DNA of 64,000 nucleotides, taken from contig CP067346.1 of assembly GCA_021561035.1 (NCBI GenBank), positions 3,007,001-3,071,000 of the forward strand. The letters run 5' to 3'. Source of the DNA: Clostridioides sp. ES-S-0054-01 (GTDB taxonomy: Bacteria > Bacillota > Clostridia > Peptostreptococcales > Peptostreptococcaceae). The translations under genes were made by a program, and so were the position numbers. Under the pieces are notes generated by a model, which worked only from the letters and a program-made list of their open reading frames with translations, was not told the origin of the DNA and did not search any database. Shown here piece by piece: positions 23,861 through 30,662 of the stretch (positions are counted from its first letter, which is position 1; each line of letters opens with the position of its first letter).

Positions 23861-24282
23861 AAGATAAATTAAATTTTATTCAGTCATCTTATTATAGTTT
23901 TCCAAGTCTAAGTATAGATATAAATATGAAATTTATTGATGAAATCCATTATAAATCTAGAAATGAAGGTAGGATAATATTAATATATACTACAAATTCA
24001 ATGGAGAATTACAACATATTGTTAAGGTAAATGACTAAATCTAAGTCTATTTTTCCTTAATATGATTCTCTACATAGGTCATTATATTTAGCAGCTATGT
24101 ATACCCTAAAAAAATAAATCAAAATATTAGAAATTAGAATCAAGTTTTAGCTCACTTAACTATTTATTTTGAGGAAAGAAATTTAATTCTAAATTAATAA
24201 AAAAAAAATAAATATTTCAAAAAATCAAGAAATTTTCTTAATAGATGTGATAATTTCTCCATATATGAAAAAATATGAAAAT
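23861..24282. other. AT-rich intergenic region, no gene supported
   Basis: This is the junction between the cel/chb locus and the trehalose module. A 34-codon plus-strand frame (MKFIDEIHYKSRNEGR and onward) has no ribosome site and is not called. The stretch may be a remnant or simply spacer flanking an inserted block. Confidence 0.3.
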
Positions 24283-24387: not shown

Positions 24388-26046
24388 TTATTTTTCATTT
24401 TTAAATAAAGCTATACATTCATACGGTCTCAAAGTAATTGTTGAAGTAACTTTTCTATCCTGATAATTAGATATTATACACTCATATTTTTCAAGCTTCT
24501 CATTATCTAAAATAACATCAATTTCTTTATCATAAAAATTATTTAATACCACTAAAGATTCCTTTTCATAACATCTCTTATATGCAAATATAGAATCATT
24601 ATCTTCTAATAATGGCTTAAAATCCCCATATGCTACTACATCATACTTTTTCCTTAATTCTATTAACTTCTTATAATAGTAAAGAATAGAATCTTTATCT
24701 TTTAAACTATTCTCTACATTTATATCTTTATAATTGTTTATAACTTCTATCCATGGTTTTGATTCACTAAAACCTGCATTCTTACTACCATTCCATTGCA
24801 TAGGTGTTCTTGAATTATCACGAGACCTTTCCTGTAATATCTTGTATATCTCTCCATCTTTCATTCCTTGAGATTTTAATATCTCAAAATAATTTAAACT
24901 CTCAACATCTACATATTGTTTTACATCAGTAAAGTATGCGTTAGTCATACCTATTTCTTCACCTTGATATACATATGGTGTTCCTCTTAAGAAATGAATT
25001 ATAGTGGCTAACATTTTAGCGGACTCTTTATAATACTTTTTATCATCTCCAAATCTAGATATTATACGTGGTTGGTCATGGTTACACCAAAATACAGCAT
25101 TCCATCCATTACCTTTTTCCATTCCTATCTGCCACTCATTAAGTAGTTTTTTTAATTTAACAAAATCACAATCTTGCAACATCCATTTATTTTGATTTTT
25201 ATAATCGACTTTTAAATGGTGAAAATTAAAACACATAGACAATTCTTTCTCATCTGGATTTGAATATTTTATACAGTTTTCTACAGTCGTAGAAGACATC
25301 TCACCTACAGTCAACATATCATGTTCTAATACTCCACTTTCTTCACACATTTCTTTTAGGTATTGATGTACTTTTCTACCATCTGTATAAAAACATCTAC
25401 CATCACCTTGTAAATCATCTTCATATTTCTCTGGTTTAGATATTAAATTTACTACATCAAATCTGAATCCTTTTATTCCTTTATCTATCCAAAACTTTAA
25501 TATATTTTTTAATTCTTTTCTTACATTAGGATTTTCCCAGTTTAAGTCTGCTTGAGTTTTATCAAATAAATGTAAATAATATTGATTAAATTTCTCTACA
25601 AATTCCCAAGCATTGCCTCCAAATTTTGATTTCCAATTTGTTGGAGCACTTTTATCTTCTTTAGGATTTTTAAATATATAAAAATCTTTATAGTATTCAT
25701 CTCCTTTAAGTGCTTTTTTGAACCACTCATGCTCTGTAGATGTATGATTAAATACCATATCAAACATGATACCTATATTTCTTTTCTTAGCTTCTTTTAT
25801 TAAATTTTCCAAATCATCCATAGTTCCATATATAGGGTCTATATTATAATAGTCAGCTACATCATACCCATTATCATTTTGTGGTGATACAAAAAATGGA
25901 GTAATCCATACATAATCAACACCTAAAAATTCCAAGTAATCTAATTTTTCTGTTATTCCATTTAAATCTCCTAAACCATTATTTGTTGTGTCATTAAATG
26001 ATTTTAAATATATTTGATACACTACACTCTTTTTAAAATCTAACAT
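24388..26046 (-). CDS. treA2: Trehalose-6-phosphate hydrolase (GH13)
   Basis: A 552-residue GH13 enzyme of the oligo-1,6-glucosidase/phosphotrehalase group. Conserved blocks are YDVADY, MFDMVFNHTS, the nucleophile Asp in GFRFDVVNL, the acid Glu in TVGEM and WCNHDQPR. Adjacency to a trehalose-type PTS and a TreR-like regulator makes phosphotrehalase (trehalose-6P to glucose plus glucose-6P) the best call. It is 66 bases downstream of the PTS gene. GGAGATAAT precedes the ATG. The treA2 name follows the accessory C. difficile trehalose cluster and is inference from layout. Confidence 0.86.
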   Translation of the reverse strand: MLDFKKSVVYQIYLKSFNDTTNNGLGDLNGITEKLDYLEFLGVDYVWITPFFVSPQNDNGYDVADYYNIDPIYGTMDDLENLIKEAKKRNIGIMFDMVFNHTSTEHEWFKKALKGDEYYKDFYIFKNPKEDKSAPTNWKSKFGGNAWEFVEKFNQYYLHLFDKTQADLNWENPNVRKELKNILKFWIDKGIKGFRFDVVNLISKPEKYEDDLQGDGRCFYTDGRKVHQYLKEMCEESGVLEHDMLTVGEMSSTTVENCIKYSNPDEKELSMCFNFHHLKVDYKNQNKWMLQDCDFVKLKKLLNEWQIGMEKGNGWNAVFWCNHDQPRIISRFGDDKKYYKESAKMLATIIHFLRGTPYVYQGEEIGMTNAYFTDVKQYVDVESLNYFEILKSQGMKDGEIYKILQERSRDNSRTPMQWNGSKNAGFSESKPWIEVINNYKDINVENSLKDKDSILYYYKKLIELRKKYDVVAYGDFKPLLEDNDSIFAYKRCYEKESLVVLNNFYDKEIDVILDNEKLEKYECIISNYQDRKVTSTITLRPYECIALFKNEK

Positions 26047-26079
26047 ATTATCTCCTATCTAGCCAATGCATATTAACAT

Positions 26080-26100
26080 CCCTTGATATAAAACCAAGGG
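26080..26100 (-). other. Small intercistronic hairpin between PTS and phosphotrehalase genes
   Basis: CCCTTG and CAAGGG flank a 9-base loop. There is no T-run, so it is more likely an mRNA processing or stability element than a terminator. Confidence 0.4.
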
Positions 26101-26112
26101 AATTGTATGTAT

Positions 26113-27546
26113 TTATACGTTGTCATTTGCATTAAATTTACCACTCTTATAAAATAAGTACGTTAATCCTATTGTTATTACAAATGTTATTGCCATTCCT
26201 GTGAAATATACACCCCAATATTCAGGCATTACTGAAAGGAATGAGAATACTCCTCCAACTCCAACAGCTGTAGCTTTAACATTGTGATATGATATAAATG
26301 CTCCTCCTATTGCACTTGCTACCATAACTGCTATAAATGGATACCTAAATCTTAAGTTTATACCGTATATAGCTGGTTCTGTTATTCCTAGCCATGCTGA
26401 TATAGTAGACGTAATAGATACACCTCTTAGGTTCTTATTATTTTTTAGTATGAAAAACATTGCTAACGTAGCAGCTCCTTGAGATAATGTAACAGTCTCT
26501 GATATTGGCCACAATGTTACGTATCCTAAAGTTCCTGCCATTTGTAGGTTTACTCCTAAGAATAAATGATGCATTCCTGTTATTACTAATGGTGGTGAAA
26601 TAAATGAATATAACGCTCCTGCTAAAACTGGTGCCACTTCAAATAAATACACTACTCCACTAGTTATCATATTTGCACCTGTCATAGTTATAGGACCTAT
26701 AACTACAAAGGTTAACATACCTGTAATTAATAAAGCTATCGGTGAAACTAATACTAATTGAACTGCATCTGGAACAGTCTTTTTTAAGAATAATTCAAGT
26801 TTAGCTAAAATGTATGTAGCTATTAAAACGGGTACTACTTGACCTTGGTATCCAACTTGAGCAACCTTCATACCAAATATATCCCATGTTGGTGCTGCTG
26901 ATGGATTTGCCGCAAAATCATATGCAGACATCAAAGCTGGATGAACTAATACAAGACCTAAAACTACGCCTAATAAAGGATTTCCTCCAAACTTCTTAGC
27001 AGCTGACCAACCTATTAATGCTGGTAAAAATGTAAAAGATGTATTTGCTATTAAGTTTATAATACCTGAAATTCCAGCGATACCTGTATTTGCCTCTATA
27101 ACAGACTGCTCATAAAAAATCCCTGGATTAGCTATCATGTTGTTAACGCCCATAAGTAACCCTGATGCAACTATTGCTGGTAATATAGGAATGAATATAT
27201 CAGCAAGAACTCTTATAAACTTTTGTAATTTATTTGACTTTTCATTGACTTGTTGTTTTATTTCTTCTTTGGATACCTCTTCTGCTCCTGTTTGATCTAT
27301 TAAATCTTTATATACTTTATCTACTCCAACTCCTATTACTATTTGAAACTGTCCACCTGCATTGAAGCACCCTTTTACTATATCAATGCCTTCTAGTTTA
27401 TTAATATTTGCCTTGCTAGTATCTTTTAGTATTAAACGTAATCTTGTTACACAGTGTGTTGCACTTTGTATATTTTCTTTTCCCCCAACATACTCAATAA
27501 TTTGAGAAATACTTTCTTTTGAATTCAATGCCTTATTCTTCCTCAT
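26113..27546 (-). CDS. ptsT: Trehalose-type PTS IIBC component
   Basis: A 477-residue fusion. The N-terminal IIB domain (about residues 8-90) carries the phospho-Cys in ATHCVTRLRLIL; the IIC domain has about ten membrane segments with GMHHLFLGVNLQ and GITEPAIYGINLR typical of the glucose/sucrose/trehalose family. There is no IIA domain, so a separate glucose-type IIA must serve it. AGGA lies 9 bases before the ATG at 27546; the in-frame GTG at 27552 is too close to it. Divergent from the TreX-like gene, sharing a regulatory region. Confidence 0.88.
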   Translation of the reverse strand: MRKNKALNSKESISQIIEYVGGKENIQSATHCVTRLRLILKDTSKANINKLEGIDIVKGCFNAGGQFQIVIGVGVDKVYKDLIDQTGAEEVSKEEIKQQVNEKSNKLQKFIRVLADIFIPILPAIVASGLLMGVNNMIANPGIFYEQSVIEANTGIAGISGIINLIANTSFTFLPALIGWSAAKKFGGNPLLGVVLGLVLVHPALMSAYDFAANPSAAPTWDIFGMKVAQVGYQGQVVPVLIATYILAKLELFLKKTVPDAVQLVLVSPIALLITGMLTFVVIGPITMTGANMITSGVVYLFEVAPVLAGALYSFISPPLVITGMHHLFLGVNLQMAGTLGYVTLWPISETVTLSQGAATLAMFFILKNNKNLRGVSITSTISAWLGITEPAIYGINLRFRYPFIAVMVASAIGGAFISYHNVKATAVGVGGVFSFLSVMPEYWGVYFTGMAITFVITIGLTYLFYKSGKFNANDNV

Positions 27547-27585
27547 ATCCACTTATCCTTTCTCTTTTTCATTATTAGCAACAAG

Positions 27586-27597
27586 TTGTTTAAACAA
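27586..27597. promoter_or_regulatory. TreR-like operator 1
   Basis: TTGTTTAAACAA, a perfect 12-bp palindrome in the leader of the PTS gene, 17 bases from the next copy. Confidence 0.75.
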
Positions 27598-27602
27598 GCA
27601 TC

Positions 27603-27614
27603 TTGTTTGAACAA
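27603..27614. promoter_or_regulatory. TreR-like operator 2
   Basis: TTGTTTGAACAA, one mismatch from operator 1 and just downstream of the -10 hexamer. Together the two sites also form a larger inverted repeat from 27584 to 27616. Confidence 0.75.
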
Positions 27615-27618
27615 CTTC

Positions 27619-27647
27619 ATTGTAATATTTTACGTTAACTTAGTCAA
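27619..27647 (-). promoter_or_regulatory. Sigma-A promoter of ptsT-treA2
   Basis: On the minus strand TTGACT (27642-27647), 17-base spacer, TACAAT (27619-27624). Confidence 0.8.
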
Positions 27648-27655
27648 TAGTTTTT

Positions 27656-27669
27656 TGAAAACATTTTCT
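27656..27669. promoter_or_regulatory. Possible CcpA cre site
   Basis: TGAAAACATTTTCT resembles the catabolite-responsive element (TGAAAACGTTTTCA type), placed just upstream of the ptsT -35. One central base deviates from the CG core. Confidence 0.5.
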
Positions 27670-27729
27670 TATTTATTTTTTTGATAAATTAACTCTTGAT
27701 AATTATTTCATTATTTGGTAAGTTAAATA

Positions 27730-27750
27730 TATAATCACTTGTATAAACAA
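27730..27750 (+). promoter_or_regulatory. treX -10 and TreR-like operator 3
   Basis: TATAAT (27730-27735) is followed at once by TTGTATAAACAA (27739-27750), a third variant of the module's operator, 45 bases before the treX start. The -35 is poorly conserved. Confidence 0.65.
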
Positions 27751-27795
27751 GTCAAATAAATATATAAAATAAATTATGAAAGGACTATACTACAA

Positions 27796-29535
27796 ATGAA
27801 TATAAAAGAAATTCCATTTAGTTACTTTGGATCTTATATGTCTATTTCCTATTCAGACGAACTTGGATTTACATTAAAATCATTAAGAGGAAAAGCAAAG
27901 AAAAATATGGATGTACTAAGGATTATACCTACCGTAAATAACATACCTGTAGATTATGAATTTGAGGCTAATTATTTTAGTATATTAATTAAATTCAGCA
28001 GTGGTAGTATATCTATATGTTTTGACGGAGATTCTAAAATCGTATTCTATGGTAAGGGAGAAAATGTAGGGCTTAAATTAGATACACTTCCTATATACAA
28101 TTTTGAATATAATTATCTTCTGGGGAAAAAAGGTGCAGAATATTGTGTTATAAATAGCTACAAAAATTTAACTAAGTTTTTAGTATTCTCTGTTAATGGT
28201 AAGGTTACCTTATCACAAAACATATTTATAGATGGCTGTGCTTCTACAAATAAAGCTAATAATACTTCAATAATAGATGTTAGCAGTAATAGTGATAATG
28301 AATTTATATGTGTTATAGAGGATATTCCTACTCATATGAAGATTCCAGATTACAAGGAATATAACTTTGAAACTTCATTAAATAAAACAAAAAAATTATT
28401 TGATGAATATTATCTAGCTCAACCTAAAGTAGATGAAAAGTATAAAAACTCACTTTTAAGAGCGAGTTATATAAACTGGTCTTCTTTTGTTAAGCCTCAA
28501 GGATATCTAAAGAGATATACTATACTTGCTTCAAACTCAACATTCTTAGGTGCATGGAGCTGGGACCACTGTTTTAACGCATTAGCTTTAGCTGGTGTAA
28601 ATGATAAATTAGCTTTTGACCAAATGGCAGTACTCTACGACTACCAAGATGAATATGGTCAAATTCCTGGTTCTTTAAGCGATTCTACTATTAGATGGAA
28701 TTTTACAAAGCCACCTATTCAAGGATTATTCTTTAGTAAGATGATGAAAAAAATTAACTTTACTAAAGAAACATTAGAGGAAATTTATAATTACATAGAA
28801 AAACAAGTATTGTTTTATGTAAAGTTTAAAGATTCAAATATGGATGGTATTTTTGAATATCACCATGGAAATGATTCTGGTCAGGATAACAGTACAATAT
28901 TTAAAGGAGCCATGGTTGTTGATACTCCTGATTTAACAGCCTTTATAATAAATGCTATGGACATGCTATCAAAAGTAGCTGAAAAACTAAATAAGAATAG
29001 TGAAAAAGAGTATTGGTCTAATAAAGCAGACGAACTTACAAAGTTATTCTTAAATTATTTTATAGTCGATGATTTACCTGTAGTTCGCGAAACTGTAACT
29101 GGTGAAATACTTCCTAATAATGCCTTACTTCCTCTTGTTTCTTTAGTGCTAGGAAATAGACTTCCTAAATATACTAGAGATAAAATGATAGCTTTAGTTA
29201 CTAGCGAAAGATATTTAACTAACTGGGGAATCGCAACAGAAGCTATAGATAGTGATGAATATCAAGATGATGCTTATTGGAGAGGTCCTATTTGGGCTCC
29301 TACTACACTGTTATTTGTTGAAGCTTTAGAAGAGTGTGGTGAAAATGAACTTGCAATAGATATTGCCAAAAGATATTGTGAACTAGTTGATAAAAACGGC
29401 TTTGCTGAAAATTTCAATGCTATTACAGGAGAAGGTCTTAGAGATAAATCTTTCACCTGGACAGCTAGTACTTTCATATACTTAGCTGCTAAAGTTTATA
29501 AGTATAACTCTCAAAGAATTAATAATATAAAATAG
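27796..29535 (+). CDS. treX: TreX-like (alpha/alpha)6-barrel glycosidase
   Basis: A 579-residue protein of the GH63/GH37/amylo-alpha-glucosidase-like barrel superfamily. Visible blocks are WSWDHCFNALALA (about residue 254), GQIPGSLSDSTIRWNFTKPP, DTPDLTAFI, and RGPIWAPTTLLF. The gene at this place in the accessory C. difficile trehalose cluster was described as a putative glycan debranching enzyme. No signal peptide, so it acts on imported sugar. Its 3' end lies inside a long palindrome shared with the convergent regulator gene, and both proteins end SQRINNIK. Confidence 0.78.
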   Translation: MNIKEIPFSYFGSYMSISYSDELGFTLKSLRGKAKKNMDVLRIIPTVNNIPVDYEFEANYFSILIKFSSGSISICFDGDSKIVFYGKGENVGLKLDTLPIYNFEYNYLLGKKGAEYCVINSYKNLTKFLVFSVNGKVTLSQNIFIDGCASTNKANNTSIIDVSSNSDNEFICVIEDIPTHMKIPDYKEYNFETSLNKTKKLFDEYYLAQPKVDEKYKNSLLRASYINWSSFVKPQGYLKRYTILASNSTFLGAWSWDHCFNALALAGVNDKLAFDQMAVLYDYQDEYGQIPGSLSDSTIRWNFTKPPIQGLFFSKMMKKINFTKETLEEIYNYIEKQVLFYVKFKDSNMDGIFEYHHGNDSGQDNSTIFKGAMVVDTPDLTAFIINAMDMLSKVAEKLNKNSEKEYWSNKADELTKLFLNYFIVDDLPVVRETVTGEILPNNALLPLVSLVLGNRLPKYTRDKMIALVTSERYLTNWGIATEAIDSDEYQDDAYWRGPIWAPTTLLFVEALEECGENELAIDIAKRYCELVDKNGFAENFNAITGEGLRDKSFTWTASTFIYLAAKVYKYNSQRINNIK

Positions 29536-29577
29536 AGTACAAATTGTACTCTATTTTATATTATTAATTCTTTGAGA
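29509..29577. terminator. Bidirectional terminator with 32-bp perfect arms, overlapping both gene ends
   Basis: Arms 29509-29540 and 29546-29577 are perfect inverted copies around the loop AAATT. Each arm contains the last eight codons and stop of one gene, giving treX and the regulator the same C-terminal octapeptide SQRINNIK. The flanking A/T runs make it a terminator in both directions. Confidence 0.9.
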
Positions 29578-30282
29578 TTGATGAAAAAATATAAATCCAT
29601 CAGGTATATGTCTAGACTGCGTATATTCAAACATTATACCTTGAGCATTATAAGTATTATTGCTAACAACTGCAACACAATTGTAATCTCCTAATTCTAA
29701 ATATCTTTTATCTAGTTTAGTTGCTTTTTCAACTGTCATGGTTCTTTTTGTCGTTACTATAGTTTCATTTAATTTACTTTCCATATATTCATATATAGAA
29801 TTAGATGCTATTTCTTCATTAATATCTTTTACTATATCCTTCATAAAATAATTATGATCCATAATAGATGGTTTATTTTCTAGAATTCTTACTCTTTGTA
29901 TATAATACACTTCTGTTCCAACTTCAAAGTTAGTTATTTGACTTTTTTTATCATCTATAATCATTTCCTCAAAATGAACTACTTTCGTTTTATATTCTTT
30001 ATTGTTTCTAATAGCAGACTCTTTAAATGACTCTGTCCCCCCTAACAAAAACTCTGATTGTTTATTAGCCTTATAAATTATAAATACTCCTTTTCCATGC
30101 TTACTTTGAACATATCCTTGGCTTGCTAATTCCTGTATAGCTCTTCTAATTGTATTTCTAGAACAACTATACTCTTCTATTAATGTGTATTCTGATGGTA
30201 ATAAATCTTGGTATAAATATTCTTTATTTTCTATTCTATTTTTTAAATCTATATATATATCATAATACTTGGCTCTTCCCAT
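29551..30282 (-). CDS. treR2: GntR-family (UTRA) trehalose regulator
   Basis: A 243-residue GntR/UTRA regulator. The winged helix covers about residues 1-70 (LPSEYTLIEEYSCSRNTIRRAIQEL, then GYVQSKHGKGVFI); the C-terminal UTRA domain includes YIQRVRILENKPSIMDHNYF and FEYTQSRHIPDGFIFF. TreR of Bacillus is of this type and responds to trehalose-6-phosphate. Three 12-bp palindromes between ptsT and treX are its probable operators. GGGAGG precedes the ATG. The final eight residues are identical to those of treX because of the shared palindrome. Confidence 0.88.
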   Translation of the reverse strand: MGRAKYYDIYIDLKNRIENKEYLYQDLLPSEYTLIEEYSCSRNTIRRAIQELASQGYVQSKHGKGVFIIYKANKQSEFLLGGTESFKESAIRNNKEYKTKVVHFEEMIIDDKKSQITNFEVGTEVYYIQRVRILENKPSIMDHNYFMKDIVKDINEEIASNSIYEYMESKLNETIVTTKRTMTVEKATKLDKRYLELGDYNCVAVVSNNTYNAQGIMFEYTQSRHIPDGFIFFHQSQRINNIK

Positions 30283-30617
30283 TCTAACCTCCCAATTTTA
30301 TATAATTATTTAATTGTGTCTTATTTCTAATAACTATGTATTAATATAATATATTATAAATTAAGCAAATATCAAAATAAATATAAATTTAAAACTGAAA
30401 CTAAATTTTTTTCTAAAAAACTTCAAATATAAACACTATTAAAATATTGGTTTGATACTAAACTTGATAATATTCTAAATCCAATCTTCCAGTTACACCG
30501 AAAATTTTAGAGAAAGTTTTAGTAGATGTTTCTTTATTTGATAAATATAATCGTGCAGACTCTTAAATATATAATAGCAAAAGGAAAGTTAAAACTAATA
30601 ATATTAATTAGAATTTC
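30283..30617. other. Intergenic region with possible coding remnant
   Basis: No intact gene. Plus-strand 30470-30567 reads SKSNLPVTPKILEKVLVDVS and then LFDKYNRADS before a stop, with a stop just upstream and no start. It looks protein-like but is too short to assign and could be chance. The near end holds the regulator promoter. Confidence 0.25.
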
Positions 30618-30662
30618 AAAAAGTCTATTCTGTAAATAATAAATTATAAGAATAGACTTTTT
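30618..30662 (-). terminator. Terminator of the ABC transporter operon
   Basis: AAAAAGTCTATTC (30618-30630) pairs with GAATAGACTTTTT (30650-30662), 28 bases after the permease stop, with a T-run on the minus strand. Confidence 0.88.

What the first reader, a model, noticed from the sequence alone, without database searches (positions are those of the whole stretch)
24388..30282. Four-gene accessory trehalose module (treA2-ptsT / treX-treR2)
Seen: GH13 phosphotrehalase, trehalose-type PTS IIBC, a barrel glycosidase and a GntR/UTRA regulator in one block. Known: a four-gene insertion of this composition (ptsT, treA2, treX, treR2) was described in C. difficile RT078 and some other lineages and linked to growth on low trehalose. 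Inference: this isolate carries that block between a chitobiose PTS locus and an ABC transporter operon.
Basis: partly seen in the sequence, partly recalled or inferred. Interest (0 to 1): 0.75.

Follow-up and report, generated by a model that had tools for sequence, protein, structure and literature searches.

The report
Trehalose gene module, unusual TreX enzyme
A four-gene sugar-uptake module known from some C. difficile lineages sits here in an environmental relative of C. difficile, in place of other genes, and its least understood enzyme looks like a glucosidase retuned for sugars imported by a phosphotransferase transporter.

Summary
The block is real and correctly located: treA2, ptsT, treX, treR2 at 24388-30282. 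It matches the published RT078 'secondary trehalose cluster' in gene content and in divergence from resident TreA/TreR. But the genome is most likely not C. difficile: its length, 3,925,358 bp, equals the chromosome of Clostridioides sp. ES-S-0054-01, cryptic clade C-IV, reported trehalose-positive. There is no empty site: 7 of 7 other Clostridioides genomes hold MATE and GGDEF genes there, and the window keeps 3' scraps of both; an IS256-type remnant borders the block. TreX is a GH63/MGH1-type glucosidase with both catalytic acids. PTS-linked TreX proteins (8 of 75 loci plus the window) form one clade (100/100) whose pocket positions differ from the other 67; 29 of those 67 lie near ABC permeases. 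Best reading: a TreR2-controlled trehalose-6-phosphate module; TreX as a second, non-homologous phospho-alpha-glucosidase is plausible but unproven. New member of a known kind; the TreX reading is the new part.

The parts
23876..23926 (-). 3' scrap of the MATE transporter gene that fills this site in the other species
   Evidence: flank alignments of 7 of 7 comparators run to 23926; stop-codon register checked against L127
23929..24382 (+). degraded IS256/Mutator-type transposase remnant at the left edge of the block (internal gap, stop codons)
   Evidence: ~80% identical repeats elsewhere in the genome and genus; translation resembles a Mutator transposase; the two ORF pieces of the L143 copy hit PF00872, 165.5 and 30.3 bits
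24270..24330 (-). hairpin downstream of treA2, terminator-like, inside the IS-derived end
   Evidence: -19.9 kcal/mol, z -5.5
24388..26046 (-). treA2, alpha,alpha-phosphotrehalase (GH13)
   Evidence: TIGR02403 864.9 bits over cut-off 799.05; best solved chain 5brq, GH13, 731.7 bits
26113..27552 (-). ptsT, trehalose-type PTS EIIBC; no EIIA domain among the Pfam hits
   Evidence: PF02378 and PF00367; TIGR01992 best, NF008236 over cut-off
27585..27598 (.). TreR-type operator 1, on the ptsT side
   Evidence: GTTGTTTAAACAAG
27602..27615 (.). TreR-type operator 2
   Evidence: CTTGTTTGAACAAC; the same core lies in the C. tertium treA2-treX gap, L008:9732
27738..27751 (.). TreR-type operator 3, on the treX side
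   Evidence: CTTGTATAAACAAG; the same core lies in C. tertium L008:9958
27796..29535 (+). treX, GH63/MGH1-like (alpha/alpha)6 glycosidase of the PTS-linked subfamily
   Evidence: PF22422; D364 and E538 align with the catalytic Asp182 and Glu419 of MhGgH; model pLDDT 93.7; GH63 structures are the top fold matches
29509..29577 (.). perfect 34-bp inverted repeat, 1-nt centre, overlapping both gene ends; probable two-way terminator; gives TreX and TreR2 the same last 8 residues
   Evidence: z -12.4 and -12.8 on the two strands; only repeat with a perfect stem of 24 bp or more and a loop of at most 12 in 489,002 bases scanned
29551..30282 (-). treR2, GntR/UTRA trehalose repressor type
   Evidence: PF00392 and PF07702; TIGR02404 203.1 bits
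30521..30566 (+). 3' scrap of the GGDEF gene that fills this site in the other species
   Evidence: compared by eye with G001 and G003; flank alignments of 6 of 7 comparators begin at 30521-30531 and that of G004 at 30657

Best explanation
A self-contained trehalose uptake and cleavage module. PtsT imports trehalose as trehalose-6-phosphate (EIIA supplied in trans); TreA2 splits it to glucose and glucose-6-phosphate; TreR2 acts on three operators in the divergent ptsT/treX control region in response to trehalose-6-phosphate, most likely as a repressor; TreX, read in the opposite direction from the same region, is an inverting GH63-type alpha-glucosidase of a PTS-linked subfamily and most likely acts on trehalose-6-phosphate or another alpha-glucoside imported by PtsT. 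The module came in late: it displaced a MATE-to-GGDEF stretch that its relatives keep. Shown by computation: genes, families, operator-like sites, replacement scars, catalytic residues, subfamily signature. Inferred: substrates, transport, mode of the regulator, TreX's substrate.
For: Family scores. Operator-like sites, with similar sites in C. tertium, L010, L011 and L012. treX beside ptsT in 7 of 7 relatives of 46% identity or more (L008-L014), with treA2 in L008, L012 and L014. PMC8942030 gives ES-S-0054-01 as trehalose-positive in API 20A. [quoted passage not shown] Scars and IS remnant; no close MATE or GGDEF copy found elsewhere in the genome. TreX catalytic pair and fold.
Against: PtsT and TreR2 fall slightly below two curated trehalose cut-offs. 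M120 treR2 itself was repressed on trehalose, CD305 genes were induced without growth, and R20291 TreR bound its DNA more strongly with trehalose-6-phosphate, which the authors read as activator-like; so the repressor mode is unsure. No operator of this pattern was found in the stretches scanned for L009, L013 and L014. No base-composition signal of foreign origin: block 29.0% GC, window 29.2%. In L009, L011 and L013 ptsT-treX stands without treA within 10 kb, while those genomes keep treA beside a PtsT-like PTS elsewhere, so the pair may serve another sugar. The genome also has treA and treR, so the trehalose-positive phenotype does not prove that the block is responsible. Absence from other Clostridioides could partly reflect loss.
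Confidence: 0.78

Rival explanations
1. The ptsT-treX pair serves a different alpha-glucoside (for example kojibiose, a glucosylglycerate or a trehalose derivative), with TreX cleaving its phosphorylated form; treA2 joined it in a few lineages.
For: ptsT-treX occurs without treA nearby in L009, L010, L011 and L013, while those genomes carry phosphotrehalase elsewhere, in three of the four (L147, L148, L149) directly beside a PtsT-like PTS of 50-52% identity. treX-linked PtsT proteins form their own group, 94/92. Nearest solved relatives of TreX act on glucosylglycerate, mannosylglycerate and Glc-alpha-Gal (titles).
Against: treA2 is in the block here and in L008, L012 and L014; the operators are of TreR type; TreR2 is closest to the trehalose repressor model; M120 treX is induced on trehalose.
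Confidence: 0.3
2. TreX is an ordinary cytosolic trehalase for unphosphorylated trehalose, or a glycan debranching enzyme, as the literature labels have it.
Against: No debranching family among the Pfam or NCBIfam hits of TreX at E 0.001. YgjK and MGH1-type structures rank first, though MhGgH and GH37 rows lie within about 1 Z unit of each other, which counts as a tie. A PTS delivers phosphorylated sugar (general knowledge), and the pocket positions differ from all 67 other relatives examined, none of which had a glucose- or lactose-type PTS EIIC detected within 5 kb.
Confidence: 0.25
3. The block is a decaying relic: redundant beside treR-treA and bordered by a dead insertion sequence.
For: IS remnant with stops; other trehalose-type loci in this genome are rearranged.
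Against: All four ORFs are intact, operators are present, TreX catalytic residues conserved, and the strain is reported trehalose-positive.
Confidence: 0.05

Closest known systems
C. difficile RT078 (M120) secondary trehalose cluster treA2-ptsT-treX-treR2; PMC10569727 (abstract, passages, Methods part 1 and section 20 read), PMC7167513 (passages and section 13 read), PMC9170149 and PMC11915817 (passages read)
   Same: same four genes; TreA2/TreR2 equally diverged from TreA/TreR; treX intact, as implied for M120
   Different: clade C-IV chromosome; treX not truncated as reported for RT023 CD305; replaces a MATE-GGDEF stretch; own treR and treA lie about 8.7 kb apart. M120 letters, treX length and site were not available for comparison.
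Clostridium tertium DSM 2485 locus (L008)
   Same: all four genes, 65-77% protein identity, two of the same operator cores
   Different: order treA2-treX-treR2-ptsT, with a ROK-family gene next to treA2
GH63 / MGH1-type glucosidases: E. coli YgjK, MhGgH, Thermus MgH
   Same: fold, catalytic Asp/Glu, and most aligned -1 subsite residues
   Different: TreX positions aligned with the +1 residues His78 and (by extension) Tyr36 are G292 and F250; TreX lies next to a PTS; K305 stands for Gln115
Bacillus TreP-TreA-TreR systems
   Same: PTS, phosphotrehalase and GntR/UTRA repressor; operator core like the recalled B. subtilis TreR site
   Different: adds treX; PtsT falls outside the TreA-linked PTS group of the tree

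Membership tests
RT078-type secondary trehalose cluster | treA2, ptsT, treX and treR2 together in one block | tested here: met
RT078-type secondary trehalose cluster | TreR2 ~45% and TreA2 ~52% identical to the primary TreR and TreA | tested here: met
   44.9% and 53.1% against the genome's own TreR and TreA; published values are against R20291
RT078-type secondary trehalose cluster | direct sequence identity to M120 and the same insertion site | not testable with these tools
   M120 is not held by name; the one comparator read as C. difficile, G001, lacks the block
RT078-type secondary trehalose cluster | supports growth on low trehalose | not testable with these tools
   only a qualitative API 20A positive is published for this strain
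alpha,alpha-phosphotrehalase (TIGR02403) | score over the curated cut-off | tested here: met
   864.9 over 799.05
PTS trehalose EIIBC (TIGR01992) | score over the curated cut-off | tested here: not met
   570.9 under 591.95; the related NF008236 is passed, 414.3 over 409
trehalose repressor TreR (TIGR02404) | score over the curated cut-off | tested here: not met
   203.1 under 211.95; best model all the same
trehalose repressor TreR | TTGTNNNNACAA-type operators at the target promoters | tested here: met
   three in the ptsT-treX gap; binding itself not tested
GH63/MGH1-like glycosidase | catalytic Asp/Glu pair and (alpha/alpha)6 fold | tested here: met
   D364 and E538 invariant in 30 of 30 aligned proteins, aligned to Asp182/Glu419; folds
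glucosylglycerate hydrolase (NF047898) | score over the curated cut-off | tested here: not met
   68.4 under 550
GH37 trehalase (PF01204) | score over the gathering cut-off | tested here: met
   31.6 over 21 for residues 333-533, far weaker than PF22422
PTS-linked phospho-alpha-glucosidase | activity on a phosphorylated alpha-glucoside | not testable with these tools
   inferred from context and signature

The most novel reading that the evidence does not exclude
TreX belongs to a PTS-dedicated branch of the GH63/MGH1 glucosidases: an ancestor kin to ABC-associated alpha-glucosidases moved next to PTS transporters once and had its +1 sugar pocket rebuilt (D to G at 292, M to F at 250, mostly V/L/I to R or H at 300, W to Q or Y at 363) to take a 6-phosphorylated sugar, making it a second, structurally unrelated trehalose-6-phosphate hydrolase or a hydrolase of a kindred PTS sugar. 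This would give the RT078-type cluster a function for its unexplained gene and would fit the suggestion in PMC11915817 that RT023 fails to grow on trehalose because its treX is truncated.
Probability: 0.4. Interest if true: 0.65.

Novelty: new member of a known kind. Interest (0 to 1): 0.5.

Why it matters
The four-gene cluster was discussed as a trait of epidemic C. difficile lineages. Its presence in an environmental cryptic species, with relatives in C. tertium and Bacillus, fits a wandering environmental trehalose trait better than a clinical adaptation. A concrete enzymatic hypothesis for TreX (fold, catalytic residues, pocket signature) makes the least understood gene of the cluster directly testable.

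Tried and rejected
Plasmid and phage carriage: no near DNA match of the block in 72,556 plasmid or 50,697 phage records (records of this genome may be left out there). Plasmid TreX homologues: 68 records, all under 60% identity, none of the 20 listed above 34%. Rfam: nothing over a gathering score in 17000-38000. PADLOC: no hit for TreX or TreR2. cre sites: no exact match in the window to the recalled consensus used. TreX survey: 1 of 71 family genomes at E 1e-20; 3 of 398 phylum genomes at E 1e-120, of which the two besides the own genome lack the PTS signature.

Idea that treX-PTS genomes lack phosphotrehalase, making TreX its replacement: rejected, since the genomes of all eight loci L008-L015 have a TIGR02403 match over cut-off (in L008, L012 and L014 that includes the locus's own treA2).

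Counter-observations: L020 has an EIIC-like PF13303 protein beside treX but the non-PTS signature; my first PTS screen missed it. 37 of the 67 non-signature proteins had neither an ABC permease nor a PTS EIIC detected within 5 kb, some on short contigs. Of the 80 loci, 75 gave a usable treX ORF; 5 were dropped. The PTS-linked set is one clade, so the signature is one evolutionary event, not nine, and the positions were picked from the same alignment that they describe. L015 departs at 300 (H), 363 (Y) and 493 (G). In one search L014 PtsT and the outgroup rows were cut to at most 480 residues, three outgroup branches were long, and the split ptsT3 of G007 was left out. The AlphaFold model is weak at 358-363 (pLDDT under 50), next to signature position 363.

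That RT078 lacks the F3 flagellar region is recalled. No published C-IV identity value was seen. The organism of PDB 7l7b (C. difficile) is recalled, so reading G001 as C. difficile rests partly on recall: its RpoC shows no mismatch to 7l7b along the match line printed (to residue 1000; the chain's letters are printed to about 957), G000's shows eight; the two RpoC differ at 9 of 1161 residues.

Full report
Observation. The four ORFs are present at the stated coordinates and intact. Pfam and NCBIfam place them as GH13 phosphotrehalase, glucose-family PTS EIIBC nearest to the trehalose models, an MGH1-like/GH63-like glycosidase, and a GntR/UTRA regulator nearest to TreR. Two trehalose-specific cut-offs are narrowly missed (PtsT on TIGR01992, TreR2 on TIGR02404); neither protein is closer to a sucrose or maltose model.

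Whose genome. The window lies at 3,007,001-3,071,000 of a single 3,925,358-bp contig. Table 2 of PMC8942030 (sections 23 and 24 and passages read) lists Clostridioides sp. ES-S-0054-01, clade C-IV in Table 3, chromosome CP067346, at 3,925,358 bp, and ES-S-0010-02, clade C-III, at 4,259,110 bp, the length of contig C1 of comparator G007. G001 behaves as C. difficile: its RpoC shows no mismatch to PDB 7l7b along the match line printed (to residue 1000), against eight for the window genome (organism of 7l7b recalled). Sampled fragment identity between the two genomes is 94.8% (198 of 380 fragments), below the 95.9-96.2% published for clade 5 (passages). So this is a near relative from a survey of environmental samples, not an RT078 isolate. 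The same paper records ES-S-0054-01 and the other C-IV isolate tested as trehalose-positive, and 1 of 3 C-III isolates as positive, ES-S-0010-02 being negative. In G007 the trehalose-type PTS gene at the third locus, the only one that I examined there, is split into two ORFs. That agreement rests on two strains.

Distribution and site. treX occurs in 1 of 8 Clostridioides genomes and 1 of 71 genomes of the family (E 1e-20). In 7 of 7 other Clostridioides genomes the same gap, between the regulator gene beside the chitobiose-type PTS and the ABC transporter operon, holds a MATE gene and a GGDEF gene, plus in 5 of 7 a homocysteine S-methyltransferase/MTHFR fusion (Pfam run on one copy of each, the others judged by length and start). 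The window retains 51 bp of the MATE 3' end (23876-23926) and 46 bp of the GGDEF 3' end (30521-30566). The genome has no other match to the GGDEF protein at E 1e-20 and only distant MATE relatives, best 30% identity. The block therefore replaced this stretch; no empty site was found. The ~400-bp repeat next to treA2 is a degraded IS256/Mutator-type remnant, a possible trace of how the block arrived. GC content gives no signal of foreign origin (29.0% against 29.2%).

Regulation. Three TTGTNNNNACAA palindromes lie between ptsT and treX. A sample of this genome has 0.057 such sites per kb, 28 in 489,002 bases, these three included. Two of the three cores recur exactly in the C. tertium treA2-treX gap, and similar sites precede ptsT-treX in L010, L011 and L012, but none was found in the stretches scanned for L009, L013 and L014. 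treX and ptsT-treA2 are thus likely controlled together. Published work reports trehalose-6-phosphate as the TreR effector in R20291, where it increased DNA binding, which the authors read as a possible activator function; and trehalose induction of treA2, ptsT and treX in M120 and CD305 and of treR2 in CD305, while M120 treR2 was repressed and CD305 did not grow (PMC10569727). Repression by TreR2 is therefore the usual family expectation, not shown.

PTS-linked subfamily. Of 80 loci from genome contigs, 75 gave a usable treX ORF. In 8 of 75 a glucose- or lactose-type PTS EIIC lies within 5 kb, and these eight plus the window carry N247, F250, G252, G292, R/H300, Q337, Q/Y363 and A/G493. None of the other 67 has this set: all 67 have K247, M250, D292, W363 and G493. 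Of the 67, 29 lie within 5 kb of an ABC permease matched by a profile from five loci (one permease of each confirmed as PF00528), 1 beside a PF13303 EIIC-like protein, 37 near neither. A tree of 46 of these 76 proteins puts the nine in one group with 100/100 support, so one shift suffices. Position 292 aligns with His78, and 250 falls by one-residue extension of the alignment on Tyr36, both substrate-binding residues of MhGgH that touch the +1 side. The pattern, -1 site largely kept and +1 site changed with an acidic residue lost and a basic one gained (though Lys247 is also lost), is what a switch to a substrate phosphorylated on the leaving sugar could look like. That is inference. Against a simple 'second phosphotrehalase': ptsT-treX pairs without nearby treA occur in genomes that keep treA elsewhere, so the native substrate may be another alpha-glucoside.

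Other trehalose loci. The primary treR and treA, adjacent in G001, are separated here by about 8.7 kb holding an aminotransferase, a lactose/cellobiose-type PTS, an M42 peptidase, a PRD/EIIA protein and an IS605-type OrfB. At a third locus (G000 864-873 kb) ptsT3 and its GntR gene remain but the phosphotrehalase gene present in G003, G004, G005 and G007 is missing. By the positions, the block is the only place in this genome where a PtsT-like PTS and a phosphotrehalase-like GH13 gene lie within a few kb of each other.

Verdict. The block is a known kind of module in a species where I found no published report of it (searches; the Eyre 2019 survey is not held, and may cover it). The new parts are the replacement history, the host, and a specific, testable reading of TreX.

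Noticed in passing
window 29509-29577: Perfect 34-bp inverted repeat covering the ends of the convergent treX and treR2 genes, so both proteins end in SQRINNIK; not seen in the C. tertium or L010 junction printed. Looks like a recent inverted duplication or a two-way terminator.
   Followed up: partly
L125 (G000:C1:3220000-3236000): Primary treR and treA are separated by about 8.7 kb carrying PTS, peptidase, PRD and IS605 OrfB genes, whereas they are adjacent in G001; the sequence just upstream of treA is shared with G001.
   Followed up: partly
L126 (G000:C1:864000-873000), compared with L134-L137: Third trehalose-type locus: four other species have treA3 next to ptsT3 and just ahead of a sulfatase and a radical-SAM/SPASM gene. 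Here treA3 is missing, the two flanking alignments overlapping by a few bases, and the sulfatase follows the operator-like site directly. The sulfatase neighbours hint at a sulfated sugar substrate.
   Followed up: partly
   Followed up: no
L020:8778-9866: PF13303 EIIC-like membrane protein directly upstream of a treX relative that has the non-PTS signature; a counter-example or a different transporter type.
   Followed up: no
L008:7000-7935: ROK-family (glucokinase-like) gene beside treA2 in the C. tertium four-gene locus, which could use the free glucose released from trehalose-6-phosphate.
   Followed up: partly
G000:C1:3221757-3222029: PTS-like stretch with one in-frame stop near treR, a possible PTS remnant.
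   Followed up: no
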